A DNA stretch of 64,000 bases from Alphaproteobacteria bacterium (GCA_030428255.1 JAUIBT010000014.1:1-64000); one strand, 5' to 3'. Shown: positions 49,806-64,000, counted from the first letter of the stretch. Notes: generated by a model not told the origin, from the sequence alone. Made by a program: numbers and translations.

Positions 49806-52550
49806 ATGAACGCTGTAGAAATCGAAGAAGCCATTTCGGAGCTTGCCGAACAGCCTTTCGATGCCGACGACTTCCCCTTCGCTTTTCTTGAGGCATTTGG
49901 CAACAAAGCCACCACCATCAAAAAGCTGCGCAGCGGGGCGAGCAACAAGTCCGATCTGGGCGGTGTCCTGCAAACCAACAACATCCATATCAAGGTCTGT
50001 GAGCCGGGGCTGGTCAGCCAAACCCTGCTAGCACTGCGCGAAAGCCCCGCGACCACCAAGGCCAAAGCCAAGTTCATTTTGGCCACCGACGGAGAAGAGT
50101 TTCAGGCCGAAGTGCTGGCTGGTGGCGAGGCGGCGATTTGTGCCTACCGCGACTTTCCCGATCACTTTGGGCTTTTCTTGCCCTTGGCGGGCATATCCAC
50201 CGTTCAGCAAATCCGGGAAAGCGCCTTTGATATCAAGGCCACCGGCCGCCTCAACCGCTTATATGTTGAACTGCTCAAGCAAAACCCCGACTGGGGAACC
50301 GCCGAACGCCGGGCAGACATGAACCACTTCATGGCCCGCTTGATCTTCTGTTTTTTTGCCGAAGATACCGATATCTTTAACGGCAGCGGGCTGTTGACCA
50401 AGACCGTCGAGCAAATGAGTGCTTCGGATGCCTCGGACACCCACACGGTGATCAGTGCGATCTTCCAGGCCATGAATCTGCCAGTTGGTCAGCGCGCGGA
50501 GGCCAAGTTGCGGCCCTGGGCTGACCAGTTTCCTTATGTCAACGGCGGGCTGTTTTCGGGATCGACTGAGGTGCCGCGCTTTTCCAAGATTGCGCGCTCC
50601 TACCTGATCAACATCGGCAATTTGGATTGGCAAAAGATCAACCCGGATATTTTCGGCTCGATGATCCAGGCGGTGGCTGACGACGAGGAACGCAGCGCTC
50701 TGGGGATGCACTACACATCCGTGCCGAACATACTGAAGGTGCTGAACCCGCTCTTTTTGGACGACTTGCGCGAAAAGCTGGCCGAGGCGGGCGATAATCC
50801 GCGCAAGCTGCTGAATTTGCGCGGCCGCATGGCGCGCATTCGGGTGTTTGACCCGGCCTGTGGTTCGGGCAACTTTCTGGTTATCGCTTACAAGGAAATG
50901 CGGGCGATTGAGGCCGAGATCAACCAACGGCGCAACGAAGCCCATCGGCGCAGCGATATTCCGCTGACCAACTTTCGCGGCATCGAGCTGCGCGACTTCC
51001 CCGCCGAGATCGCGCGGTTGGCGCTGATCATCGCCGAGTATCAATGCGACGTAACCTATCGCGGTCAACAGGAAGCGCTGGCCGAGTTTCTGCCGCTCGA
51101 TGCCAAGAACTGGATCACCTGCGGCAACGCCCTGCGGCTCGACTGGCTGAGCATTTGTCCGCCGACAGGAACGGCGGTAAAAATGCACGGAGACGACCTG
51201 TTTGCCACCCCGTTGGATCAGTCCGAAATCGATTTCGAAAACGAAGGCGGGGAGACCTACATTTGCGGCAACCCGCCGTATCTTGGTTCGACTTGGCAGA
51301 GCAAAGAGCAGAAAGAAGACTTGCGGCACATTTTCGAGGGGCGCGCGACGAGCTGGAAGTCGCTTGACTATGTTGCTGGGTGGTTCATGAAAGCTGCGGA
51401 CTATGGGCAGCACACGCCAACGGTAGCAGCGTTCGTTGCAACCAACTCTATATGCCAAGGGCAACAGGTCCCCTTCTTATGGCCAATCATCCTCAGAACG
51501 GGACACAGAATTAGTTTTGCCCATACAAACTTCAAATGGGCGAACCTAGCAAGCCAGAATGCGGGCGTAACAGTTGTGATTGTCGGCATTTCAAAGCAGA
51601 GCGGTGGCGCGGTTCTTTTCTCAGAGAATGAGAACAGTGCGAATATCCGAAAAGATGTCGATAACATAAATCCATATTTGATAGCTGGCGACAACGTGAT
51701 TGTTGAGAAGGCGATGAAGCCTCTCACGCAAGTGAGTTTGATGGAATTTGGGAACAAAGCAGACGATGGCGGTCATCTTACACTAACTCCATCTGAGGTT
51801 GAAAATCTCGAGCTGACCGACCAGCAAAGGAAGGATTTCGTCAGGCGTTTTCTAGGTTCCAGAGAGCTGATTAACGGTGAAACTCGCTACTGTCTCTGGG
51901 TAAAAGATGACATGTTGGATGATGCGAAACGCATTCCAACTGTTGCACTGCAAATAGAAAAAGTCCGCACCGCTCGTTTGAATAGCAAGGACGCCTATGC
52001 ACGTAGCCTCGCCAAACGAGCCCACCAGTTCAAGACACCTCGTGCGGCCAAATCCACTGTCATTGTGACACCGCGGGTTAGCTCAGAAAATCGACCGTTT
52101 CTCCCGGTCGAGTATTTGAGCGACGTAGCAATAATCGGGGATCGCAACTTTGCCCTCTACGATGCCCCACTATGGAACATGGCGCTGATTGCATCACGCC
52201 TGCATTGGGTCTGGATCGGGACGGTTTGCGTGCGGATGCGCACCGACTTCAGCTATTCCAACACCCTCGGATGGAACACCTTCCCCGTCCCGAAGCTGAC
52301 CGAAAAAAACAAGGCTGACCTGACCCGCTGCGCCGAGGACATCCTTCTGGCGCGCGAAGCGCATTTTCCCGCGACCATCGCTGACCTCTACGACCCCGAG
52401 AAGATGCCCGCCGACCTGCGCGCCGCCCACGACCGCAACGACGAAACGCTGGAGCGCATCTACATCGGCCGCCGCTTCAAGAACGACACCGAACGCCTGG
52501 AGAAGCTGTTTGAGCTCTACACCAAAATGACCCAGAAGGTGGCGGCATGA
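49806..52550 (+). CDS. Large MmeI/PglX-like adenine-specific DNA methyltransferase
   Basis: A 914-residue protein. Regulatory or helical N-terminus (1-330), SAM motif I RVFDPACGSGNFLVIAYK (about 347-364), catalytic motif IV GNPPYLGS (about 487-494), then a target-recognition region (about 530-800) and a helical C-terminus (ADLYDPEKMPADLRAAHDRN). The arrangement is that of MmeI-type and BREX/DISARM-type N6-adenine methyltransferases; no PD-(D/E)xK motif was identified at the N-terminus. GAGGGAAGAAG precedes the ATG. The stop overlaps the next start by four bases (ATGA). The DNA from about 51370 to 52190, which encodes the recognition region, is clearly AT-richer than the flanks. Confidence 0.85.
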   Translation: MNAVEIEEAISELAEQPFDADDFPFAFLEAFGNKATTIKKLRSGASNKSDLGGVLQTNNIHIKVCEPGLVSQTLLALRESPATTKAKAKFILATDGEEFQAEVLAGGEAAICAYRDFPDHFGLFLPLAGISTVQQIRESAFDIKATGRLNRLYVELLKQNPDWGTAERRADMNHFMARLIFCFFAEDTDIFNGSGLLTKTVEQMSASDASDTHTVISAIFQAMNLPVGQRAEAKLRPWADQFPYVNGGLFSGSTEVPRFSKIARSYLINIGNLDWQKINPDIFGSMIQAVADDEERSALGMHYTSVPNILKVLNPLFLDDLREKLAEAGDNPRKLLNLRGRMARIRVFDPACGSGNFLVIAYKEMRAIEAEINQRRNEAHRRSDIPLTNFRGIELRDFPAEIARLALIIAEYQCDVTYRGQQEALAEFLPLDAKNWITCGNALRLDWLSICPPTGTAVKMHGDDLFATPLDQSEIDFENEGGETYICGNPPYLGSTWQSKEQKEDLRHIFEGRATSWKSLDYVAGWFMKAADYGQHTPTVAAFVATNSICQGQQVPFLWPIILRTGHRISFAHTNFKWANLASQNAGVTVVIVGISKQSGGAVLFSENENSANIRKDVDNINPYLIAGDNVIVEKAMKPLTQVSLMEFGNKADDGGHLTLTPSEVENLELTDQQRKDFVRRFLGSRELINGETRYCLWVKDDMLDDAKRIPTVALQIEKVRTARLNSKDAYARSLAKRAHQFKTPRAAKSTVIVTPRVSSENRPFLPVEYLSDVAIIGDRNFALYDAPLWNMALIASRLHWVWIGTVCVRMRTDFSYSNTLGWNTFPVPKLTEKNKADLTRCAEDILLAREAHFPATIADLYDPEKMPADLRAAHDRNDETLERIYIGRRFKNDTERLEKLFELYTKMTQKVAA

Positions 52551-53554
52551 GCGATCTGATCCTTTACACCACCGAGGACGGCAAAGCGCGGATCACCTTG
52601 CAGGCCGAAGGTGGGACCGTTTGGCTTACGCAAGTACAGATTGCTGAGCTGTTTGCCACAACCAAACAGAACGTTTCGCTGCATATCAAGAACATCCTAT
52701 TCGATGGCGAACTGAGCGCGGCGGCAACTGTCAAGGAATCCTTGACAGTTCAGACCGAGGGCGAGCGGCAGGTCGAGCGACAGGTAATCCACTATAATCT
52801 CGATATGATCCTTGCTGTCGGCTACCGCGTCCGCTCCCCCCGTGGGGCGCAGTTTCGACGTTGGGCTAGCACGATTTTACGTGAGTATCTGGTCAAGGGC
52901 TTCGTCATGGATGATGCCCGTCTCAAGCAGCCAGATTTCGATTATTTCGATGAACTTCTTGAACGCATCCGCGACATTCGTGCCTCCGAGGCGCGGTTCT
53001 ACAGGAAGGTCCGCGATCTCATGGCGCTAAGCGACGACTATGACGGGTCGAGCGCGGCGGCCCAGACCTTCTTTGCCAAGGTCCAAAACAAGATGCTGTT
53101 TGCGGTCACCGGCCACACCGCCGCCGAGTTGATCTCCGCGCGTGCTGACGCCTCGGCCCCGAACATGGGCCTGACATCATGGAAGGGCGCGCGGGTGCGC
53201 AAAGGGGATGTGATGACGGCAAAGAACTATCTGGCCGATGGCGAGATTTCTGATCTGAACCTGATCGTGACCATGTTCCTTGATACGGCAGAGCTGCGCG
53301 CCAGGCGTAGGCAAACCATGCGGCTCGCTGAATGGGAGACCGTTCTTGACGGATTCTTAGCGTCAAACGAACTGCCCAAGCTCGACAATGCAGGCAGTAT
53401 TTCACACCAGCGCGCCCTAGGCATTGCCGAACAGCACTATGAGAATTTCGACAAGGCGCGCAGAATGGCTGAACTCGAAGCTGACCGAAGCACGAGCGAA
53501 CTTGAGGAGCTTGAAAAAATCGCGAAGTCGGCGAAGAAAGGCGATCCGAAATGA
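52547..53554 (+). CDS. RhuM-family protein
   Basis: A 335-residue protein of the virulence-RhuM family: LILYTTEDGKARITLQAEGG, then VWLTQVQIAELFATTKQNVS (a helix-turn-helix-like segment, about 26-45), and RVRSPRGAQFRRWASTILRE (about 94-113). The C-terminal half has GLTSWKGARVRKGDVMTAKN. The biochemical role is unknown; relatives occur beside restriction systems and toxin modules. It overlaps the methyltransferase and the helicase by four bases each, so it is an integral part of the operon. Confidence 0.85.
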   Translation: MSDLILYTTEDGKARITLQAEGGTVWLTQVQIAELFATTKQNVSLHIKNILFDGELSAAATVKESLTVQTEGERQVERQVIHYNLDMILAVGYRVRSPRGAQFRRWASTILREYLVKGFVMDDARLKQPDFDYFDELLERIRDIRASEARFYRKVRDLMALSDDYDGSSAAAQTFFAKVQNKMLFAVTGHTAAELISARADASAPNMGLTSWKGARVRKGDVMTAKNYLADGEISDLNLIVTMFLDTAELRARRRQTMRLAEWETVLDGFLASNELPKLDNAGSISHQRALGIAEQHYENFDKARRMAELEADRSTSELEELEKIAKSAKKGDPK

Positions 53555-55599
53555 AAACCGTACCCTCCGTTTCTGTCACCTACGCTCAAACCGGCGGCTC
53601 GACCAAATCGAACGAGCTCGGCATGCGGGCCATGCAGGAGCGCGCCTTTGAGAAGCGGGGCGAGCAGTACCTCTTGATCAAATCGCCGCCCGCCTCGGGC
53701 AAGAGCCGCGCGCTCATGTTCATCGCGCTCGATAAGCTGCACAACCAGGGTCTCAAGCAGGCAATCGTGGTGGTGCCCGAGAAGTCGATCGGATCCAGCT
53801 TTAACGACGAACCGCTAAGCAAATTCGGGTTTTGGGCGGATTGGAGCGTCGCTCCGAAATGGAACCTTTGCAACTCGCCCGGCACCGATGGCGGCAAGGT
53901 CAAGTCGGTGGGGGCCTTTTTGCAAAGTAGCGACCGGGCGTTGGTCTGCACCCACGCCACTTTTCGCTTTGCTGTCGAACACTTGGGTATCGAGGCTTTC
54001 GACGATCGCCTGATTGCCGTCGATGAATTTCACCACGTCTCGGCCAGCGATGACAACATTCTGGGCGCCCAGCTCAACGAGCTCATCGCGCGTGATCGTG
54101 TGCATCTCGTGGCCATGACGGGCAGCTATTTTCGCGGCGATGCGGTGCCGATTTTGCTGCCGGAAAATGAAGCCAAGTTCGACACGGTCACCTATACCTA
54201 CTACGAGCAGCTCAACGGTTACACCTATTTGAAATCGCTCGATATCGGCTACTTCTTCTATTCCGGTTCGTATGCAGACGACATTTTGAAGGTGCTCGAT
54301 CCCAACGAAAAAACAATTGTCCATATTCCAAGCGTCAACTCGCGTGAAAGCACCAAGGACAAGCACCGCGAGGTTGAGCATATCATCGATGCCCTTGGCG
54401 ATTGGCAGGGCTCGGATCCCATGACGGGGTTCCAGCTCGTTAAGTCTTCGACGGGGCGGCTGTTGAAAATTGCTGATTTGGTGGACGACGAAGGAGCCAA
54501 GCGCGACCGTGTGTCCGCAGCCCTGAAAGATCCCGCCCGCAAAAACGATCGCGATCATGTGGACATCATCATCGCCTTGGGCATGGCCAAAGAAGGCTTT
54601 GACTGGATTTGGTGCGAGCACGCCCTGACCGTCGGCTATCGCGCTAGCTTGACCGAGGTGGTGCAGATCATCGGCCGGGCGACTCGCGATGCGAAGGGAA
54701 AGTCCCGTGCGCGCTTCACAAACCTGATCGCCGAGCCCGATGCGTCGGAGCTGGCCGTCACTGAGGCCGTGAACGACACGTTGAAGGCCATCGCGGCAAG
54801 CTTGCTCATGGAGCAAGTGCTTGCGCCCCGGTTCAATTTCACGCCGAAGACGGCAGCGAGCGGGCCGGTGGAGGGCTTTGACTATGGCGAAGGCGGCTAT
54901 GACCCGAACAAGGAGAACGTCGGATTTAGAGAGGAAAGCGGCCAATTCCAGATCGAAATCAAAGGGCTCGCCATGCCTAAAAGCGAGGAGGCCGGGCGCA
55001 TTTGCAGAGAAGATCTGACCGAGGTCATCACCGCTTTCGTCCAAGACAAAACAGCAATTGAACGCGGGCTTTTCGATGACGAACTGGTTCCCGAAGAACT
55101 GACACAAGTCCGCATGGGCAAGATTGTCAGTACCAAGTTCCCTGAGCTCGATGCGCAGGATCAGGAGGCAGTGCGCCAACACGCAATCGCCGCCCTCAAC
55201 CTGACACAAGAGGCGAAGAGGGCCGCGCTTTTGGGTACAGATGATGCAGCGAATGTGAGCGGCAACACGGCACTGATAGATGGGGTGCGAAAGTTCGCGA
55301 TGGACGTGCGAGAGCTCAATATCGACCTGATCGATCGCATCAATCCTTTCGGTGAAGCGTATTCGATCTTGGCCAAGACCATGAGCGAGGAGAGCCTGAA
55401 GCAGGTAGCGGCGGTCATATCGGCGAAGAAAATTAAGCTTACGCCGGACGAAGCTCGTGAACTGGCCAGACGGGCGCTCAAATTCAAGCAAGAACGAGGC
55501 CGCCTGCCATCTGACAAATCAGCCGACGCCTGGGAGAGAAAAATGGCGGAAGGTGTGGCATTTTTGGCCCGTATGAAGCAAGAGGCGGCGAATGGCTAA
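53551..55599 (+). CDS. SF2 DEAD/DEAH-type helicase / restriction-type ATPase
   Basis: A 682-residue superfamily 2 ATPase. Walker A SPPASGKS (about 45-52), Walker B VDEFHH (about 157-162), motif III AMTGSY (about 188-193) and motif VI QIIGRATRD (about 371-379) are all present. The overall plan resembles the R subunits of type III restriction enzymes, but no PD-(D/E)xK nuclease is evident in the C-terminal 300 residues. Cleavage would then rest with the GIY-YIG protein encoded next. Start overlaps the RhuM stop (ATGA). Confidence 0.85.
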   Translation: MKTVPSVSVTYAQTGGSTKSNELGMRAMQERAFEKRGEQYLLIKSPPASGKSRALMFIALDKLHNQGLKQAIVVVPEKSIGSSFNDEPLSKFGFWADWSVAPKWNLCNSPGTDGGKVKSVGAFLQSSDRALVCTHATFRFAVEHLGIEAFDDRLIAVDEFHHVSASDDNILGAQLNELIARDRVHLVAMTGSYFRGDAVPILLPENEAKFDTVTYTYYEQLNGYTYLKSLDIGYFFYSGSYADDILKVLDPNEKTIVHIPSVNSRESTKDKHREVEHIIDALGDWQGSDPMTGFQLVKSSTGRLLKIADLVDDEGAKRDRVSAALKDPARKNDRDHVDIIIALGMAKEGFDWIWCEHALTVGYRASLTEVVQIIGRATRDAKGKSRARFTNLIAEPDASELAVTEAVNDTLKAIAASLLMEQVLAPRFNFTPKTAASGPVEGFDYGEGGYDPNKENVGFREESGQFQIEIKGLAMPKSEEAGRICREDLTEVITAFVQDKTAIERGLFDDELVPEELTQVRMGKIVSTKFPELDAQDQEAVRQHAIAALNLTQEAKRAALLGTDDAANVSGNTALIDGVRKFAMDVRELNIDLIDRINPFGEAYSILAKTMSEESLKQVAAVISAKKIKLTPDEARELARRALKFKQERGRLPSDKSADAWERKMAEGVAFLARMKQEAANG

Positions 55600-56785
55600 A
55601 GACTTTAACGACGACGACGATGCGCTGCTGGCTGAGCTTGGGGTGGAGGTCGAGGCGAAGAAGGTTGCCGCTCGCACCCCTCGCCAAGAACGCATCATTG
55701 CGGGTTTCGAGGAAATCCAGAGGTTTTTAGCAGAAAACGGCCGCGCACCGCAGCACGGCGAAGATCGGGACATCTTTGAGCGCTTGTACGCTGTTCGCTT
55801 GGACCGCATCCGCGAGCTGCAGGAATGCCGGGAGTTGGTCGAACCTTTGGATAAAGAAGGGCTTCTGAAAGGAGCGAAACAAGCGGCGGAGCTGGACTTA
55901 GAAAATCTTGATGATGATGCGCTTTTAGCCGAGCTCGGCGTCGAGACCGATGGGCGGCAGCTCACAGAACTGAAGCACGTCCGATCGACCGCAGACAAAA
56001 AGGCGGCCGAAGAGGTCGCTAACCGCGAGCGGTGCGAGGACTTCGAGACTTTCAAGCCGTTCTTCGAGCAGGTTCAAAAGGAGCTCGATAGCGGTCAGCG
56101 TGAAACGCGGCCATTCGAAATGAAGGCTGAGATTGAGAAAGGGCGTTTGTTTATTGTGGGTGGTCAGAAAGCCTATGTTGCTGAGAAGGGAGAAACAACG
56201 ATCACAGACCATGGGCGCACCGATGCCCGCCTGCGCGTTATCTTCGATAATGGCACTGAGAGCAATATGCTCATGCGATCGCTCCAGCGGGCCTTGAACA
56301 GGGATGAGGCAGGCCGTCGGATTACCGAGCCGACCGCCGGTCCCTTGTTTTCAGATCAGACTATCGACGGAGATGAGGCAAGTGGTACGATTTATGTCCT
56401 GCGCAGCATGTCAGATCACCCGTTGGTCGCCGCTAACCGTGAGCTCGTGCACAAGATCGGCGTGACCAACATGAGCGTTGAGAAGCGCATCGCAGGCGCG
56501 CATCTTCAGCCGACTTTCCTGATGGCCAATGTCGAAATCGTGGCGACCTACGAGCTTTACAACATCAGCCGCAGCAAGCTGGAGAAACTGATCCATCGCG
56601 TCTTCGAACCCGCGCGACTTGAGATTGAGATCATGGATCGGTTTGGGCGGCCGGTTGTTCCGCGCGAATGGTTCCTCGTGCCCCTATTTGCGATTCAAGA
56701 CGCTGTAGAAAGGATCAAGGAGGGATCGATTGCAGACTATCGGTATGATCCACAAGAGGCCAATTTGAAGAAACATTCGCAATGA
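55592..56785 (+). CDS. GIY-YIG nuclease-family protein (T5orf172/MUG113-like)
   Basis: A 397-residue protein. The C-terminal GIY-YIG-type domain (about 268-375) has TIYVLRSM, VHKIGVTNMSVEKRIAGAH (the Arg-containing core), ANVEIVATYELY, and the Glu-bearing LEKLIHRVF. The N-terminal half is acidic and contains DDALLAELGVE twice (residues 9-19 and 108-118). It starts 8 bases before the helicase stop, so it is coupled. In this operon it is the most likely DNA-cutting subunit. Confidence 0.82.
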   Translation: MAKDFNDDDDALLAELGVEVEAKKVAARTPRQERIIAGFEEIQRFLAENGRAPQHGEDRDIFERLYAVRLDRIRELQECRELVEPLDKEGLLKGAKQAAELDLENLDDDALLAELGVETDGRQLTELKHVRSTADKKAAEEVANRERCEDFETFKPFFEQVQKELDSGQRETRPFEMKAEIEKGRLFIVGGQKAYVAEKGETTITDHGRTDARLRVIFDNGTESNMLMRSLQRALNRDEAGRRITEPTAGPLFSDQTIDGDEASGTIYVLRSMSDHPLVAANRELVHKIGVTNMSVEKRIAGAHLQPTFLMANVEIVATYELYNISRSKLEKLIHRVFEPARLEIEIMDRFGRPVVPREWFLVPLFAIQDAVERIKEGSIADYRYDPQEANLKKHSQ

Positions 56786-57301: not shown

Positions 57302-57506
57302 CATTCTGATATAAAACAAAAAATCAAGATAGCTGGTGTCCCCGACAGGAACCAAACCATTGTCCAAGGCCATCTATAGACATTCAAGCAGCAATTTTAT
57401 ATATATGATAATGCTCACTAAATTGCAAGCTACGTCCATTTAGATGTGCTGACGTGTAGCGTGAGCCGCACACTGATTTGTCTCTGGAATGTCTCTGAGG
57501 GTATCT

Positions 57507-58760
57507 ATGTCAACTGAAAGGCAAAGGTTTAGCACTGTCCGTGAAATTGAGGCCTGGAAGCCCAAGCAGAACAATGACACCAAATCCATTTCGATTTGCA
57601 AAGGTTTGTACGTCCGTGGGCAGTTGACGGGTTTGAAGTCATTTTATACCAGGCCCAAAGGTACTTGGCTTAAGATCGGCGACTTTGGGGCCATCACGCT
57701 AAAACAAGCTGTGGAAATGGTCACTCACGTTAGATCAGGTTTGCGAAAGGGGGGAGACTTGGACGTTGTGCGTGAGGCTCTGAGAGTCTGCCACAATCCA
57801 GACGATTTCCAATCGTGTGTAGCAAGCATTGGCAAGAAGCGTAATGAGGCTGCTAGCCCCACGGTTGATGACCTAGTAGAGCCCTTCCTCGCAAAGCTTG
57901 AGCCCAACCTAGCAATCGGCGGGAGTCGTAGAAGGTACCGTTCTATGTACAACCACCATTTTAGGAGTGAATTCGGTCAAACCACATTAGCGGAAATGAC
58001 ACGGAAGGATGTCTATGAACACTTATGTGAAGTGTATCGTACTTGTCACCCTACAGCGGTAAAGCTGAGCGCTTTTTTAAGACGAGTGTTCAAGGAGGCA
58101 ATATCTCTTGAATTAATTTCTACCAGCCCGATTCCCGACCAAGAAGTTTTCGTGTCATTTCGGCACGTTCCCAAGAGCCACCCGACGATTGACCACCACC
58201 GACTACCTTTGCTGTGGGAACGAGTAAGACACTCTGGGGCATCAGCATCTACTAAGGGAGTAATTTTGCTCGGCTTGACCACTGCGATGCGACTAGGCGT
58301 AATAAGAAAAACCCGCCAAAATCATATAGACTTTGAATCAGGGCTGTGGGTTATACCAGCTGCCGCTAATCAAGATGTCGATTACCGAATGAAAAGTGGG
58401 CGCGAATTTCAAATAGGACTACCAACGACGATATTGCACGCCCTGAGAGAACTGTTGAAACTGGATTCTGAAGAGACCCCAGAGCAGCTTCTCTTTCCTG
58501 GGGCAAGGGCAACCAATTCTCCGATAACAGATGTCGCGGTTAATAAGCTCATCAAGAAATATGAACCGAATTTGACGTTTCACGGTCTACGAAATTCTAT
58601 TAAAATCTGGGGTAGAGACAATGGTTTCCAAGACTACATAATGGACGCCTATTGCGACCACGAACTCACCGGATTGGACAAAGCATATAGGCGAGAAAAC
58701 ACCTTTCAAAAAAGATTGGCTGTGGCTGAGGCTTTGAGCCAATATATTTTGCGATCATAA
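57507..58760 (+). CDS. Tyrosine recombinase / phage-type integrase
   Basis: A 417-residue site-specific recombinase. Core-binding domain near 118-210 (VDDLVEPFLAKLEPNLA). Catalytic Arg in TTAMRLGVIRKTR (about 263), HGLRNSIKIWG (His-x-x-Arg, about 359-362), and the C-terminal DHELTGLDKAYRRE with the nucleophile Tyr near 395. ATG at 57507 has GAGGG before it, and is preferred over the ATG at 57489. It sits between the defence operon and the array of exported proteins in AT-rich DNA, the usual sign of a genomic island. Its attachment sites were not found. Confidence 0.88.
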   Translation: MSTERQRFSTVREIEAWKPKQNNDTKSISICKGLYVRGQLTGLKSFYTRPKGTWLKIGDFGAITLKQAVEMVTHVRSGLRKGGDLDVVREALRVCHNPDDFQSCVASIGKKRNEAASPTVDDLVEPFLAKLEPNLAIGGSRRRYRSMYNHHFRSEFGQTTLAEMTRKDVYEHLCEVYRTCHPTAVKLSAFLRRVFKEAISLELISTSPIPDQEVFVSFRHVPKSHPTIDHHRLPLLWERVRHSGASASTKGVILLGLTTAMRLGVIRKTRQNHIDFESGLWVIPAAANQDVDYRMKSGREFQIGLPTTILHALRELLKLDSEETPEQLLFPGARATNSPITDVAVNKLIKKYEPNLTFHGLRNSIKIWGRDNGFQDYIMDAYCDHELTGLDKAYRRENTFQKRLAVAEALSQYILRS

Positions 58761-58777: not shown

Positions 58778-60592
58778 TCACTCACACATCGCAAATTCCT
58801 TGGAGTTCAAATTGCTTGCCGTTTCCGACAAGACGTACATGTGTTCAACATCATACTCGATCACAAGTTCGAATTTTACTTGTCTCTCAACTCGCATACA
58901 TTCACTTCTAAGAGTTTGTGCAACTTGGAACGAGATAGTCCCACTATGATCGCTTAATTCTGTAAATTCGATATCCACAGGATTATAGTAGGCGAGATCG
59001 TATCCCAATTCTCGTGGTAATAACTTGTTCGCTATGGCACTTTCTACCGATATGGTTCGTCCTAGATATCCTATCGTGCCATCATTTTTATAGAGTTTCG
59101 CAAAATTGTTATAAGTTCGCATAACTCGATGAAACGCGGGATCTGCATGCGATGTATTGTCACTTAATAAATACCTATTTGCCAAGAAATTGTAAATTCG
59201 ATACTTTGAAATTGTTGGCAATTTATCAGGTGGTTTGGAACTATCGTTGAAATTCCAGGGCACCCAACTTTCCTTAGGGTCACTGACGCAATCTTCATAT
59301 TGGTCTACCTCACGGTCATTTGCCTCACTTTGCCACAAGCAAGGGCTTCCCAGGTGATGTATGGACAGCTCAAGTGGTATATAATGTGATTTCATCATCG
59401 CATCCAGCGCATTGCTAAAAGACATACTCGTTAGGTCATGTAGGCCTCTACCCCGAAAAATATATACCGTTCCAATTCTTGCATTTTCAACCGCACATTC
59501 CAGTAGGAAGTAGTCGAGGTAAAAAGCAAACTCAGTAGCAGGATTGCAACGAATATCGCTATTATCAAAATGCAAATCTTCGTTATCTTCGATTGATTTG
59601 TCAGCAATTGCTCTAAAACTGTCAAGCCCAAGCCGAATGCCTATTTGGTCTATATCGATATACGTTCCGCTTCCGATATCGCTTGAAACAAGAGACTGCA
59701 ATTCAGAATATCCGAGTTGCGTTACGTCACGATCTACACTAAGTGACCACCGTTCGGTGTCCAACAATTCGTCTTTATAGAAATAATTGTATTGCCCGTC
59801 TTTAAAGGCAATCTCACCTCCTCCTGCTTTTCCCGCATTAGATGTGGATACCCCGTGTTGGGCAATTTCAGTCAACTGCTTGTGCGTCAATTGATATGCG
59901 ATTCTAACTGGTATCAATTTAGCAGCCCTTTTTATGTCCGGAGCTACCGTCAAAAGCAAATGTGCCTGTTCCAATGTGCGAATTTCTGATGCATCTTTGT
60001 CAACCTCAAAATTCGTATTACTAATGTCTACGTTCCCTGATCCAGTATTGCTCACGTCACCTTGTATGATGATACCGTTGTTTTCAGTGACTGTATTGAG
60101 ATCGGGGTCTTGATCAGCAAACAAAATAGTCCGCTTTAAGCAGGTTTGCTCTAAACTTCCGCCACGGTTTTCAAGCGTCCAGGCCTGTATCTCCAGCATC
60201 TCAGAACCATCGAGATTGCTAAAATCGGCATGGATATAGAGGCCAGGTTCATTTACTGCCTGGAGAGATGCCTCGATCATGTCCACGTACTGGTCAGAGC
60301 CACCTTGATCTAATTTCGCCAGCAAGCCCAAGCCAGAGACATCAAAGAATGATTGGTCAGGAAACACCTCTTGAATGCCTGACAAGACATCTTTCTCAAT
60401 TTGGTAGCTTGTGCGCGTCTTTGGGCCCTTGCGAAAATAGAAGAGTTTCTTCGCCTCCTCAGCGTTGCATGAACGGTCTATCCGAATTCCGTTCAGCTCA
60501 GAAAACAGCTCTGTGCGGTCAATGCCTTGTCCCAGGGCCGTGCTGGTGGTCAGCCACGCCATTCCCATCGTTAGGATTGTCAAAAGCTTCAT
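58778..60592 (-). CDS. Exported array protein L1 (unknown, NTF2-like C-terminus)
   Basis: About 604 residues. Signal peptide (MKLLTILTMGMAWLTTSTALG), then a first domain (about 20-175) shared almost unchanged with L2. A short Gly/Asn-rich link follows (NNGIIIQGDVSNTGSGNV, about 176-193), then a middle part unlike that of L2 or L3. The C-terminal about 130 residues have FAKLYKNDGTIGYLGRTISV, resembling the NTF2-like domain pattern LYxDxVxYYGxxxS found at the ends of other exported proteins. The ATG at 60592 starts the signal peptide; the frame is open seven codons more. No known family covers the whole. AT-rich, unlike the chromosome around it. Confidence 0.7.
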   Translation of the reverse strand: MKLLTILTMGMAWLTTSTALGQGIDRTELFSELNGIRIDRSCNAEEAKKLFYFRKGPKTRTSYQIEKDVLSGIQEVFPDQSFFDVSGLGLLAKLDQGGSDQYVDMIEASLQAVNEPGLYIHADFSNLDGSEMLEIQAWTLENRGGSLEQTCLKRTILFADQDPDLNTVTENNGIIIQGDVSNTGSGNVDISNTNFEVDKDASEIRTLEQAHLLLTVAPDIKRAAKLIPVRIAYQLTHKQLTEIAQHGVSTSNAGKAGGGEIAFKDGQYNYFYKDELLDTERWSLSVDRDVTQLGYSELQSLVSSDIGSGTYIDIDQIGIRLGLDSFRAIADKSIEDNEDLHFDNSDIRCNPATEFAFYLDYFLLECAVENARIGTVYIFRGRGLHDLTSMSFSNALDAMMKSHYIPLELSIHHLGSPCLWQSEANDREVDQYEDCVSDPKESWVPWNFNDSSKPPDKLPTISKYRIYNFLANRYLLSDNTSHADPAFHRVMRTYNNFAKLYKNDGTIGYLGRTISVESAIANKLLPRELGYDLAYYNPVDIEFTELSDHSGTISFQVAQTLRSECMRVERQVKFELVIEYDVEHMYVLSETASNLNSKEFAMCE

Positions 60593-61135
60593 ATGTAAGC
60601 AGTCCCGAGTCATGAAATCTTAACGAAGACAGACTGCCATGGCTGAATGACCTTTTCCAGACCTTCCGAGTTCTGTCACCTAGTAAGCCGATTTGGCTCA
60701 CGCACACCAAGCTCATCGTGTGCAAAGGAAGCCATTGCACAAGGATCGTTAATCCCAATGCTCGTAAGTAGGGCAATGTCGTAGTCAGTGCTGCTAATGA
60801 GCACGATGAGCGTGTCTTGGCAGCTGTTTGCGAATGCGGTGTTAGAAACAAACACAAAGAGAATCACAGTTGAAACCAAATTGAACATTTAGCAATACCT
60901 TTTCACGCTTTTGCTCAACACCTTGCTGCTTTCGGAGACGATCGCAATATCATCTCCGCTGCCAGTGAGTATGAGGCGATTCTGACTGACACCACTAATC
61001 CTTCGACAATTGTCGGAGACCTCAAAATTCAGGCGAAACACCGCTTCCACCGAATTCAACGAAATTGCAGCAATTTGCAAATCATCTATATTCCAATATT
61101 CAGCGCTCGTCCACTTCGCAAAATATGCCAACTTA
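60053..61135. repeat. Long direct repeat, left copy (about 1.08 kb)
   Basis: This stretch matches 62083-63165 at a constant offset of 2030 bp. It covers the C-terminal coding part of L2, the small ORF S1 and the N-terminal coding part of L1. Similarity is highest around 60520-60730, where I see no differences, and falls towards both ends. Confidence 0.8.
60676..60888 (-). CDS. Small exported protein S1 (70 aa) between array genes
   Basis: A signal peptide (MFNLVSTVILFVFVSNTAFA) is followed by NSCQDTLIVLISSTDYD and a charged tail ending EPNRLTR. Its ATG follows the L2 stop with no gap (TAAATG), so it is translationally coupled to L2. It is repeated between L3 and L2, where the start codon is lost. 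A chaperone, immunity-like or anchoring role could be imagined, but nothing in the sequence proves one. Confidence 0.6.
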   Translation of the reverse strand: MFNLVSTVILFVFVSNTAFANSCQDTLIVLISSTDYDIALLTSIGINDPCAMASFAHDELGVREPNRLTR

Positions 61136-62622
61136 TCTCTTACGATTCGATCAAGCGACATGCTTTTTCCATAGTAGCTAACTTTGCGATCGGCTCTGTA
61201 AAGAGACGCGAGATGGTCGGACGTGCGATCGGTTGACAGATATCTAGTTTGTAAGAAACTTAAGGCATCTGAAAATGTAATTTCTTCGATCGGTGTTGTT
61301 AGAAGCTCTTGTCCACTTTGTTTGAGAAACTGCGAAAGCTCCCCCGGTTCCATCAATTGACATATTTGCTTATCACCTTCGTTTCCGTGGAGGTCCGTCA
61401 CATAACAATCACCTGCCCAGGTGCTAATATGCACCATCATAGGGATTGCATCGAGCTCTTGGTTTTGATTTACCAACGTAGGCAAAGCGGAATATGGAAT
61501 TTCACCGAATATGAATCCATCATAATTTGAAAACTGGCCTTCCATATCACAAGCGTAAAGTAAAAAACGTCCCCCTCTTGGGCCATCGAAATTCGCATAT
61601 CGGCAATTTCTTCCTGCCTTTTCGAATTTTCGTTTAATTTCCGCAATGGTATCACGGCCAAGCTGAATTGAAACACGATTAAATCCCCCTGCATCAATCT
61701 GAATTGACGGTCCAGAATATGTCGGTCGTTGCCAGCTCCCATGGTACCAATGCCCTTTTATTCTATCTTCTAAAAAATATTGAGTTCTGTCATTTTGTGG
61801 ATCCCTCATAATTTGGCCGTCCGAAAATCTGTAACACTTGTATGAACTCGACTTGAAATTTGGCCAATCCATAACATACTTGCAATCATCGCTATCTTCT
61901 AATGTCGATAACACAGCATCGTCAAACTGTATTGCAACGTTTAACGGAATAATTCTCTGTGCTAGAAGTTTATCACTTCTTGTGACCAACAGAGAAATCG
62001 CGTCGCTAACGTTTTTTATGTCAAAAGCGTTTTGTTGAAGTAGATTTTGAATTATGTTTATCGTGCCCGCCCCAGAATTGTTCACGTCACCTTGTATGAT
62101 GATACCGTTGTTTTCAGTTACTGAATTAAGATCGTGTTCTTGATCAGCAAACAAAATAGTCCGCCTTAGACAGGCCTGCTCTAATTTCCCGCCAACCTGT
62201 TCAACTGTCCAGGCTTGTATCTCTAGCATCTCAGAATCTTCAAGGTTGCTATAATCGGCATGGATATAGAGGCCAGGTTCGTTTACTGCCTGGAGAGATG
62301 CCTTAATCATGTCCACGTACTGGTCAGATCCTCCTTGATCTAATTTGGCCAGCAAGCCCAAGCCAGAGACATCAAAGAATGATTGGTCAGGAAACACCTC
62401 TTGGAGGTTTGACAGAACGTCCTTCTCAATTTGGTAGCTTGTGTGCGTCTTTGGGCCCTTGCGAAAATAGAAGAGTTTCTTCGCGTCTTGGGCGTTGCAT
62501 GAACGGTCTGTCCGAATTGCGTTCAGCTCAGAAAACAGCTCTGTGCGGTCAATGCCTTGTCCCAGGGCCGTGCTGGTGGTCAGCCACGCCATTCCCATCG
62601 TTAGGATTGTCAAAAGCTTCAT
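60889..62622 (-). CDS. Exported array protein L2 (unknown, NTF2-like C-terminus)
   Basis: About 577 residues with the same signal peptide and first domain as L1, then the NNGIIIQGDVNNSGAGTINI link, an unrelated middle, and a C-terminal domain with SLYRADRKVSYYGKSMSLDR, KLAYFAKWTSAEYWNIDDLQ and VFRLNFEVSDNCRRISGV. The last about 85 residues are almost the same in L3. So L2 shares its start with L1 and its end with L3, as expected if recombination shuffles the middle parts. Several Cys in the mature part could form disulfides in the periplasm. Confidence 0.7.
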   Translation of the reverse strand: MKLLTILTMGMAWLTTSTALGQGIDRTELFSELNAIRTDRSCNAQDAKKLFYFRKGPKTHTSYQIEKDVLSNLQEVFPDQSFFDVSGLGLLAKLDQGGSDQYVDMIKASLQAVNEPGLYIHADYSNLEDSEMLEIQAWTVEQVGGKLEQACLRRTILFADQEHDLNSVTENNGIIIQGDVNNSGAGTINIIQNLLQQNAFDIKNVSDAISLLVTRSDKLLAQRIIPLNVAIQFDDAVLSTLEDSDDCKYVMDWPNFKSSSYKCYRFSDGQIMRDPQNDRTQYFLEDRIKGHWYHGSWQRPTYSGPSIQIDAGGFNRVSIQLGRDTIAEIKRKFEKAGRNCRYANFDGPRGGRFLLYACDMEGQFSNYDGFIFGEIPYSALPTLVNQNQELDAIPMMVHISTWAGDCYVTDLHGNEGDKQICQLMEPGELSQFLKQSGQELLTTPIEEITFSDALSFLQTRYLSTDRTSDHLASLYRADRKVSYYGKSMSLDRIVRDKLAYFAKWTSAEYWNIDDLQIAAISLNSVEAVFRLNFEVSDNCRRISGVSQNRLILTGSGDDIAIVSESSKVLSKSVKRYC

Positions 62623-63165
62623 ATGTAAGCAGTCCCGAGTCATGAAATCTTAACGAAGACAGACTGCCATGGCTGAATGACCTTTTCCAGACCTTCCGAG
62701 TTCTGTCACCTAGTAAGCCGATTTGGCTCACGCACACCAAGCTCATCGTGTGCAAAGGAAGCCATTGCATCAGGGTCGTTATACCAAATTCTCGTGAGGG
62801 GGGCATTGTCGTAGTCAGTGCTGCTAATGAGCACGATGAGCGTGTCTTGGCAGCTGTTTGCGAATGCGGTGCTAGAAACAAAAACGAGGAAACCAAAGTT
62901 GTGATTAAATCAGAAATTTAGCAATGCTTTTTCACGCTCTTGTTCAACACTTTGCTGCTTTCGGAGAAAATCACAATATCATCGCCGCTGCCATTGAGTA
63001 TGAGACGATTTTGACTGACGCCACTTATCTTTCGACAATTGTCGGAGACCTCAAAATTCAGGCGAAACACCACTTCAACCGAATTCGACGAAATTGCGGC
63101 AATTTGCAAATCATCTATATTCCAATATTCAGCGTTCGTCCATTTCGCAAAATACGCCATTTTAT
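62083..63165. repeat. Long direct repeat, right copy (about 1.08 kb)
   Basis: The counterpart of 60053-61135. It covers the L3 C-terminal coding part, the damaged small ORF S2 and the L2 N-terminal coding part. Confidence 0.8.
62706..62909 (-). pseudogene. Small exported ORF S2, start codon lost
   Basis: The frame reads NFGFLVFVSSTAFANSCQDT and ends EPNRLTR like S1, but where S1 has TAAATG this copy has TAA, then ATTTC, then an in-frame TGA (62910-62912) and no ATG. It therefore lacks a normal start. Differences from S1 cluster in DNAPLTRIWYNDPDA. Confidence 0.6.
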
Positions 63166-64000
63166 CGCTTACAATCTGAGAAACTGCTTTCTCCTCACCG
63201 TAATATTCAACTGATTTATCAGCTGGATAGAGTGAGCGAAAATGAGATGGCGTGCGTTCTTGCGATATGTAACTAAGTTTCAAAAATCGCGAAATATTTT
63301 CAGCGTCGATAGAAAGGTGCATTTGGTTTAAAGCAGGCATATTTGTCTGAACGGTACCCGAGGAATATTCTTCGTTAGTTATCCAACTACGATTAGGTTC
63401 GCTTACGCAATCAGGATGCAACCAGCCATATGTCATAGTAACTTGACTTCTGAAATTTTCCCATTCTTGAGCGACTTCCGCATTAGTTTTCCCGTCACCA
63501 TCGTAGCGAACCGGGACACTATCGAAGCATTCTGTGGGTCCAGAGAAGGTCAATAAAGAAAGCGGTATCTCATCTGAATTCATAAATTTAGCAAGTGTTT
63601 CCTCATTTATAGAATCAGATAAGAATGATCTACCGAAAACATAACTCGTAAACTGCGGCCGACCAGTATAGCAATCGACATACGCAACATCACCTGCATT
63701 TTCAAGCTCTGTGATCGCTTTGCAAGTTATCGGAATTTTAGCTTCTTGCTGCATATTTTCTCGGCGTGTTATGTCAGAATAGCTGCTCTTTCCTAACTCC
63801 AAAGACAGCTCTGGGATTTGCATTGTCGGCCCACCGTTATACCTTGTGATACTTGTGTAGGAATCTTCCCCTTCGATGTACGATAACGACCAAAGCTTCG
63901 CAGTTATGATACCCTGTTGAATGGCGTAAAACAGCCTACCATCTTTAAATTTCACTTGATAAACTAGAGCATTATTCGAGTTAGGATCGTTGTTTGTGCT
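62918..64000 (-). CDS. Exported array protein L3, partial (runs off the window)
   Basis: The frame is open to the right edge; about 360 C-terminal residues are visible, and the first ATG inside is at 63955 but is internal. The middle differs from L1 and L2; the end has SLYPADKSVEYYGEEKAVSQ, KMAYFAKWTNAEYWNIDDLQ and VFRLNFEVSDNCRKISGV, nearly that of L2. The N-terminus with signal peptide must lie beyond the window, so the array has at least three members. Confidence 0.7.
   Translation of the reverse strand, partial: STNNDPNSNNALVYQVKFKDGRLFYAIQQGIITAKLWSLSYIEGEDSYTSITRYNGGPTMQIPELSLELGKSSYSDITRRENMQQEAKIPITCKAITELENAGDVAYVDCYTGRPQFTSYVFGRSFLSDSINEETLAKFMNSDEIPLSLLTFSGPTECFDSVPVRYDGDGKTNAEVAQEWENFRSQVTMTYGWLHPDCVSEPNRSWITNEEYSSGTVQTNMPALNQMHLSIDAENISRFLKLSYISQERTPSHFRSLYPADKSVEYYGEEKAVSQIVSDKMAYFAKWTNAEYWNIDDLQIAAISSNSVEVVFRLNFEVSDNCRKISGVSQNRLILNGSGDDIVIFSESSKVLNKSVKKHC

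What the first reader, a model, noticed from the sequence alone, without database searches (positions are those of the whole stretch)
58778..64000. Tandem array of exported proteins with shared ends and swapped middles
Seen: at least three consecutive genes (L1, L2, L3) on one strand. L1 and L2 share signal peptide, first domain and a Gly/Asn linker almost exactly. L2 and L3 share their last 85 or so residues. The middles are unrelated. The shared DNA repeats at a constant 2030-bp offset and is nearly identical in its core, while the middles are not alignable by eye. Inference: recombination between conserved flanks swaps central modules, which would diversify a surface or periplasmic binding or toxin protein. 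The C-terminal pattern (LY-x-D, YYGK-x-S, DK-x-x-YF-x-x-W) resembles NTF2-like domains. The array is in AT-rich DNA next to an integrase and a defence-like operon.
Basis: partly seen in the sequence, partly recalled or inferred. Interest (0 to 1): 0.85.

Follow-up and report, generated by a model that had tools for sequence, protein, structure and literature searches.

The report
Mosaic exported proteins beside caspase genes
In an uncultured alphaproteobacterium, three neighbouring genes for exported proteins keep nearly the same beginning but have very different middles; a fourth copy and a copy in another species show the same pattern beside an exported caspase-like protease gene, which suggests that recombination is reshuffling a variable recognition protein.

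Summary
Three intact exported proteins (L1-L3, about 600 aa) lie in tandem. L3 runs past the window to contig base 64738. A 1.1-kb block (3' end of one gene, spacer, 5' end of the next) repeats at 2030 bp with 91% identity.

A fourth copy (L4, another contig) and one in a same-genus genome (G1) are each followed, about 45 bp on, by an exported caspase-like protease gene. Both array spacers hold a 5' remnant of that caspase gene, so the ancestral unit was L plus caspase.

The middles are not unrelated. They form one fast-diverging family with shared cysteines, although L2 is weakly linked. Even divergence cannot explain the pattern, because silent sites are conserved in the ends and saturated in the middles. 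Between the two species, L4 and G1 share 99% identical 5' flanks and about 96% identical caspase starts, against 81-84% for housekeeping DNA, with dissimilar middles. In 6 of 7 pairs the best breakpoint falls at the Gly/Asn linker. Recombination between conserved ends is therefore well supported.

The C-terminus models as NTF2-like. The middle has no confident fold. Function is inferred: an envelope specificity protein partnered with a caspase. Only two of the genomes searched carry the family.

The parts
58778..60613 (-). L1: exported protein, 611 aa; array-type N-terminus, L4-like middle, own C-terminus
60889..62643 (-). L2: exported protein, 584 aa; same signal peptide and N-terminal domain as L1, C-terminus shared with L3
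62918..64000 (-). L3: 3' part of a 606-aa exported protein whose 5' end is at contig position 64738, outside the window
60014..60526 (-). L1 conserved N-terminal domain plus Gly/Asn linker (residues 30-200)
   Evidence: residue limits from the alignment
62044..62556 (-). L2 conserved N-terminal domain plus Gly/Asn linker (residues 30-200)
   Evidence: residue limits from the alignment
59201..60013 (-). L1 variable middle (residues 201-471)
61270..62043 (-). L2 variable middle (residues 201-458)
63299..64000 (-). L3 variable middle, part inside the window (whole: contig 63299-64159)
58781..59221 (-). L1 C-terminal NTF2-like domain (approximate; mapped from the L4 model by alignment)
60892..61293 (-). 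L2 C-terminal NTF2-like domain (approximate; mapped from the L4 model)
62921..63319 (-). L3 C-terminal NTF2-like domain (approximate; mapped from the L4 model)
60043..61147 (.). constant block copy 1: 5' end of L1, spacer, 3' end of L2
   Evidence: 91% identity to copy 2 at an offset of about 2030 bp
62072..63175 (.). constant block copy 2: 5' end of L2, spacer, 3' end of L3
60703..60888 (-). caspase-gene 5' remnant between L2 and L1 (signal peptide and start of caspase domain; the small ORF ends at 60676)
62733..62917 (-). caspase-gene 5' remnant between L3 and L2, without a usable start
57489..58760 (+). tyrosine integrase, convergent with L1 (Phage_integrase plus Arm-DNA-bind_3)

Best explanation
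L genes encode exported envelope proteins made of four parts: a signal peptide, a conserved N-terminal domain with a Gly/Asn linker, a fast-evolving middle of about 260-290 aa, and an NTF2-like C-terminal domain. The ancestral unit is a two-gene operon, L followed about 45 bp later by an exported caspase-type protease with a weak peptidoglycan-binding match. SHOWN: homologous recombination in the conserved ends and linker has brought different middles into the same frame, both between tandem copies and between species. In this genome the ancestral site has grown to three L genes whose caspase partners decayed, while one complete L-caspase pair sits at a second integrase-flanked site. INFERRED: the middle is the specificity region of an envelope recognition protein (for non-self cells, phage or an extracellular ligand), the conserved N-terminus contacts the shared machinery, and the caspase is the effector. 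In the array the L proteins would act alone or with the single intact caspase in trans.
For: Mosaicism: N-terminal dS is 0.20-0.40 between array members and 0.08 (first half) between L4 and G1, while the middles are saturated. Single-breakpoint scans on conserved-residue codons give p<1/1000 for all 7 pairs tested, 6 of them placed at alignment columns 190-206, the linker. L1 carries an array-type N-terminus but an L4-like start of the middle (M1 dS 0.52). Between species: about 530 of 535 bp identical across the upstream flank and the L 5' end, and 404 of 420 bp in the spacer and caspase 5' region, with the middle at about 40-50%. Housekeeping DNA is 81-84% and cysH next to L4 is 76%. L-caspase link: intact pair at L4, an L-caspase start at G1 and remnants after L2 and L3. 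The caspase has Peptidase_C14 above cut-off and the His106/Cys160 dyad. Retained function: the L ORFs are intact and N-terminal dN is 0.04-0.10 within the array, below dS.
Against: No experiment, no ligand and no defence-database hit. Only five L sequences exist from two genomes, so allelic diversity in a population is not shown. L1 has no caspase remnant and the genes after L2 and L3 are remnants, so L function need not depend on the caspase. Other exported caspases in these genomes have no L nearby. Both L-caspase loci lie near contig ends of draft assemblies, and the G1 caspase is cut by its contig end. Homogenisation of ends cannot be told apart from swapping of middles in most pairs.
Confidence: 0.45

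Rival explanations
1. Neutral tandem paralogues on a mobile island: the array arose by duplication of an L-caspase unit, gene conversion or unequal crossing-over keeps homogenising the ends, and the middles drift apart under weak constraint. There is no recognition function and the caspase link is historical.
For: Tandem copies with a constant offset, decayed caspases in the spacers, AT-rich island beside an integrase.
Against: All five ORFs are intact with N-terminal dN below dS. The L4/G1 pair shows near-identical ends around a divergent middle between species, where intragenomic conversion cannot act. Cysteines and motifs in the middles are conserved.
Confidence: 0.3
2. Surface antigen or receptor variation similar to Anaplasma Msp2/P44: L is a surface protein whose middle varies to escape phage, predators or host recognition; the caspase only matures or sheds it.
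For: Conserved 5' and 3' ends around a variable middle in an exported protein. The p44/msp2 expression cassette likewise has conserved ends and a central hypervariable region changed by gene conversion (PMC2789410).
Against: No archive of silent cassettes: only four L loci were found in this genome, all intact. No sequence match to known surface-antigen families.
Confidence: 0.15
3. L is a substrate or inhibitor (propeptide-like regulator) of the neighbouring caspase, and the middle diversifies because it is the cleaved or inhibitory segment.
For: Tight operon order L then caspase with both exported. The weak fold matches of the middle include BLIP, an inhibitor protein, at Z 2.9.
Against: The caspase 5' region is nearly identical where the middles differ, so no co-variation is visible there. 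The fold match is far below significance. Three L genes persist without a cis caspase.
Confidence: 0.1

Closest known systems
Anaplasma msp2/p44 variable surface proteins (Alphaproteobacteria; PMC2789410)
   Same: Conserved 5' and 3' gene ends flank a central variable region, changed by recombination; exported proteins.
   Different: Msp2/p44 uses one expression site and about 100 silent pseudogene donors with a hypervariable region of about 280 bp. Here there are four full-length genes, no silent archive was found, the middle is about 0.8 kb, there is no Pfam match, and a caspase gene is the partner.
TraA/TraB kin recognition of myxobacteria (PMC6372800)
   Same: Highly polymorphic variable domain joined to a conserved region in an envelope protein encoded beside a partner gene; recombination between alleles is proposed.
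   Different: TraA has a PA14-like N-terminal variable domain, Cys-rich repeats and MYXO-CTERM, and its partner is an outer-membrane barrel protein. None of these was recognised here.
DGR-diversified conflict sensors with peptidase effectors (PMC10907252)
   Same: A hypervariable sensor next to protease-type effectors (trypsin, caspase or CHAT).
   Different: DGRs substitute at adenine-matched positions within a variable repeat. The middles here differ by indels along their whole length, and no reverse transcriptase is in the listed neighbourhood.
Prokaryotic caspase homologues (orthocaspases/metacaspases) of Alphaproteobacteria (PMC3501461)
   Different: That survey's passages read here do not describe a mosaic variable partner; only selected passages were read.

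Membership tests
NTF2-like superfamily (C-terminal domain of L) | cone-like alpha+beta NTF2 fold | tested here: met
   AF2 domain pLDDT about 75-85; best VIA Z 13.1 to 3rob (rmsd 2.7, 122 aligned) and NTF2 itself Z 12.8
NTF2-like superfamily (C-terminal domain of L) | match to a curated NTF2/SnoaL-type sequence model | tested here: not met
   no Pfam or NCBIfam family for any L protein; membership rests on the predicted fold alone
Peptidase C14 (partner gene) | caspase domain with His/Cys dyad | tested here: met
   PF00656 35.5 bits against cut-off 21.4; His106 and Cys160 in SSHG and DACFSG
EACC1-type caspase conflict system | NCBIfam NF047832 cut-off | tested here: not met
   56 bits against a cut-off of 140
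Msp2/P44 antigenic variation | conserved 5' and 3' gene ends with a central variable region | tested here: met
Msp2/P44 antigenic variation | archive of silent donor pseudogenes for one expression site | tested here: not met
   only four intact loci found in the (draft) genome
Msp2/P44 antigenic variation | Pfam surface antigen family PF01617 | tested here: not met
   no Pfam hit
TraA-type recognition | PA14-like variable domain | tested here: not met
   no Pfam hit at E up to 1
DGR target | adenine-restricted substitutions in a fixed-length variable repeat | tested here: not met
   middles are 258-287 aa with many indels and saturated silent divergence
DGR target | cognate reverse transcriptase in the genome | not tested
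Known anti-phage defence system | PADLOC model match | tested here: not met
   no PADLOC hit for L1-L4 or the caspase
BLIP/SmpA-like or DUF4309-like fold (middle) | fold match well above background | tested here: inconclusive
   best VIA Z 5.7 (YfeY, YjgB), no Foldseek E<=0.001

The most novel reading that the evidence does not exclude
L and its caspase form an undescribed envelope recognition system in bacteria: a mosaic extracytoplasmic receptor whose central specificity domain is exchanged between strains and species through conserved ends, coupled to an exported caspase as effector (non-self recognition or periplasmic defence).
Probability: 0.2. Interest if true: 0.8.

Novelty: new variant of a known kind. 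Interest (0 to 1): 0.55.

Why it matters
Caspase homologues are frequent in Alphaproteobacteria (PMC3501461), but what the exported ones act with is poorly known. A mosaic, recombining partner encoded directly upstream gives such a caspase a testable specificity factor. The locus also shows the conserved-ends, variable-middle pattern known from antigenic variation and kin recognition, here in a family not covered by Pfam, NCBIfam or PADLOC, caught between two species with near-identical ends and dissimilar middles.

Tried and rejected
1) Middles as unrelated modules: rejected by profile comparison, although L2 is only weakly linked.

2) Ordinary evenly diverging paralogues: rejected by silent-site heterogeneity.

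3) N-terminal domain as a relative of the exported TSP3-repeat protein next to another exported caspase (contig C28): the secondary-structure order looked alike by eye, but hhalign found nothing.

4) An L remnant upstream of the orphan caspase in G001 C18: none found.

5) Fold of the middle: weak matches only (YfeY, YjgB/DUF4309, two CAP-domain secreted proteins; VIA Z 5.3-5.7), no Foldseek match at E<=0.001. A 'LG-motif' BLIP/SmpA-like fold remains a lead only.

6) Relatives: none in plasmids, phages or viral contigs. Among 385 Alphaproteobacteria sampled, full-length L occurs only in the two same-genus genomes; one weak C-terminal-domain hit is a 195-aa exported protein in G350 and another is at E 0.08.

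7) DGR-type diversification: the pattern does not fit.

8) Contamination of contig C36 as the reason for the near-identity with G001: cysH on C36 is only 76% identical to G001, so the contig is the genome's own. An assembly chimera near contig ends is unlikely, because identity declines gradually and both L ORFs stay open, but it is not excluded.

Full report
WHAT IS THERE. The window ends inside an array of three minus-strand genes: L1 (58778-60613), L2 (60889-62643) and L3 (62918 to contig position 64738). Each encodes an intact exported protein of 584-611 aa with a hydrophobic signal peptide by inspection. A repeat of about 1.1 kb, 91% identical, recurs at about 2030 bp and covers the 3' end of one gene, the spacer and the 5' end of the next. 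The non-repeated remainder is the middle of each gene. A fourth copy, L4, sits on contig C36. A fifth, G1, is in the same-genus genome G001, public record JAUIDR010000028.1, an Alphaproteobacteria MAG.

THE PARTNER GENE. L4 and G1 are each followed about 45 bp downstream by an exported caspase-like gene; the G1 one is cut by the contig end. The L4 partner (679 aa) matches Peptidase_C14 above cut-off, has a PG_binding_1 match just below cut-off and keeps His106 and Cys160. In the array, the spacers after L3 and L2 contain about 185 bp of the same caspase 5' end: P0006 is 45% identical to the start of the C36 caspase, and the L3-L2 spacer gives a 62% identical stretch at E 4e-10. So the repeated unit was once L plus caspase, and the caspases were truncated in the array. 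L1 has no caspase remnant before the integrase. The array occupies the site orthologous to G1: the flank on its right matches G001 contig C12 at 77-86% identity, including the same tRNA-Arg.

MOSAIC STRUCTURE. In sliding windows, L1 and L2 are 100% identical in the signal peptide and 70-98% through column 200, then drop to 10-33% in the middle. L2 and L3 rise again to 72-88% over the last roughly 100 residues. L1 and L4 stay similar into the start of the middle (90% then 66%) and then fall. Selection alone would not do this to silent sites. N-terminal dS is 0.20-0.40 within the array, whereas middles are saturated or not estimable, and the L2/L3 C-terminus has dS 0.65. A single-breakpoint scan restricted to codons that encode the same residue gives 0 of 1000 permutations reaching the observed value in all seven pairs tested, with the best breakpoint at alignment columns 190-206, the Gly/Asn linker, in six of them and at column 301 for L1/L4.

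BETWEEN SPECIES. The strongest case is L4 against G1. Counting the 60-bp blocks, about 530 of 535 bp are identical from 225 bp upstream of the longest ORF (TTG start) into the L coding sequence, and about 404 of 420 bp from the short spacer into the caspase 5' region, while the middle aligns at only about 40-50%. The upstream part is not coding for L, so its identity is not due to constraint on the protein. Housekeeping DNA between these genomes is 81-84% identical, and the cysH gene on the same C36 contig is 76%. The ends have therefore been shared recently between lineages and the middle has not. Identity declines gradually over about 350 bp at the 5' side, as expected if exchange points vary.

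ONE FAMILY OF MIDDLES. L3's middle matches a profile of L1, L4 and G1 at E 6e-15. L2 alone gives only E 5e-4, and L2 with L3 gives E 7e-18. Twenty columns are invariant in all five, including three cysteines.

FOLDS. The full-length L4 model is poor overall (mean pLDDT 50), but residues 490-615 reach about 75-85 and match NTF2-like structures with VIA Z 12-13. The middle alone reaches pLDDT 63 with no confident match. The N-terminal domain could not be assigned.

DISTRIBUTION. Full-length L was found in two of the three genomes held for the genus, in no other of the 11 held for the order, and in no other of 385 sampled from the class, and not in plasmids, phages or viral contigs. No Pfam, NCBIfam or PADLOC model matches L; the only PHROGs match is marginal (E 0.07, L4).

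INTERPRETATION. Shown: a mosaic exported family, recombination through conserved ends, ancestral pairing with an exported caspase, and retained open frames with N-terminal dN below dS. Inferred: the middle is a specificity region and the caspase an effector. Rivals are neutral tandem paralogues with homogenised ends, antigen-style variation, and a caspase substrate or inhibitor. The data do not separate these functions.

CAVEATS. There are five sequences from two draft genomes. Both L-caspase loci touch contig ends, and G001's contig has about 4.7-fold coverage according to its record title. NG86 dS values at this divergence are rough, and alignments of the middles are uncertain, especially for L2.

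Noticed in passing
window 49806-56785: MmeI-like Type IIG restriction-methyltransferase followed by RhuM-family protein, DEAD/ResIII-type helicase and T5orf172/GIY-YIG-type protein: a likely restriction/defence operon beside the integrase.
   Followed up: partly
L037 (G000 contig C28:72000-84000), L038 (C21), L039 (C6): Several further large exported caspase-like proteins (about 850-1000 aa) in the same genome, one with SH3_3, one ending in an FGE-sulfatase domain; two lie divergently on C28 next to an exported TSP3-repeat protein.
   Followed up: partly
L006:9711-14078 (contig C40:67710-72077): 1455-aa autotransporter-type protein with five DUF285 stretches and PKD/Ig-like domains close to the L array.
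   Followed up: no
L006:7175-7600 and L020:5265-5507: Truncated AAA/RepA-like fragment upstream of L3 and of G1, next to a 475-aa polymerase-like ORF without Pfam match: possibly remains of a mobile element at the L site.
   Followed up: no
L008:1994-3154 (contig C36): A second tyrosine integrase lies convergent to the L4-caspase pair, as one does to the array; both L loci of this genome abut an integrase.
   Followed up: partly
G350 contig C121 (L033:1489-2076): Exported 195-aa ORF near a weak match to the L C-terminal domain (E 1.4e-4), suggesting that this NTF2-like domain exists alone elsewhere.
   Followed up: no
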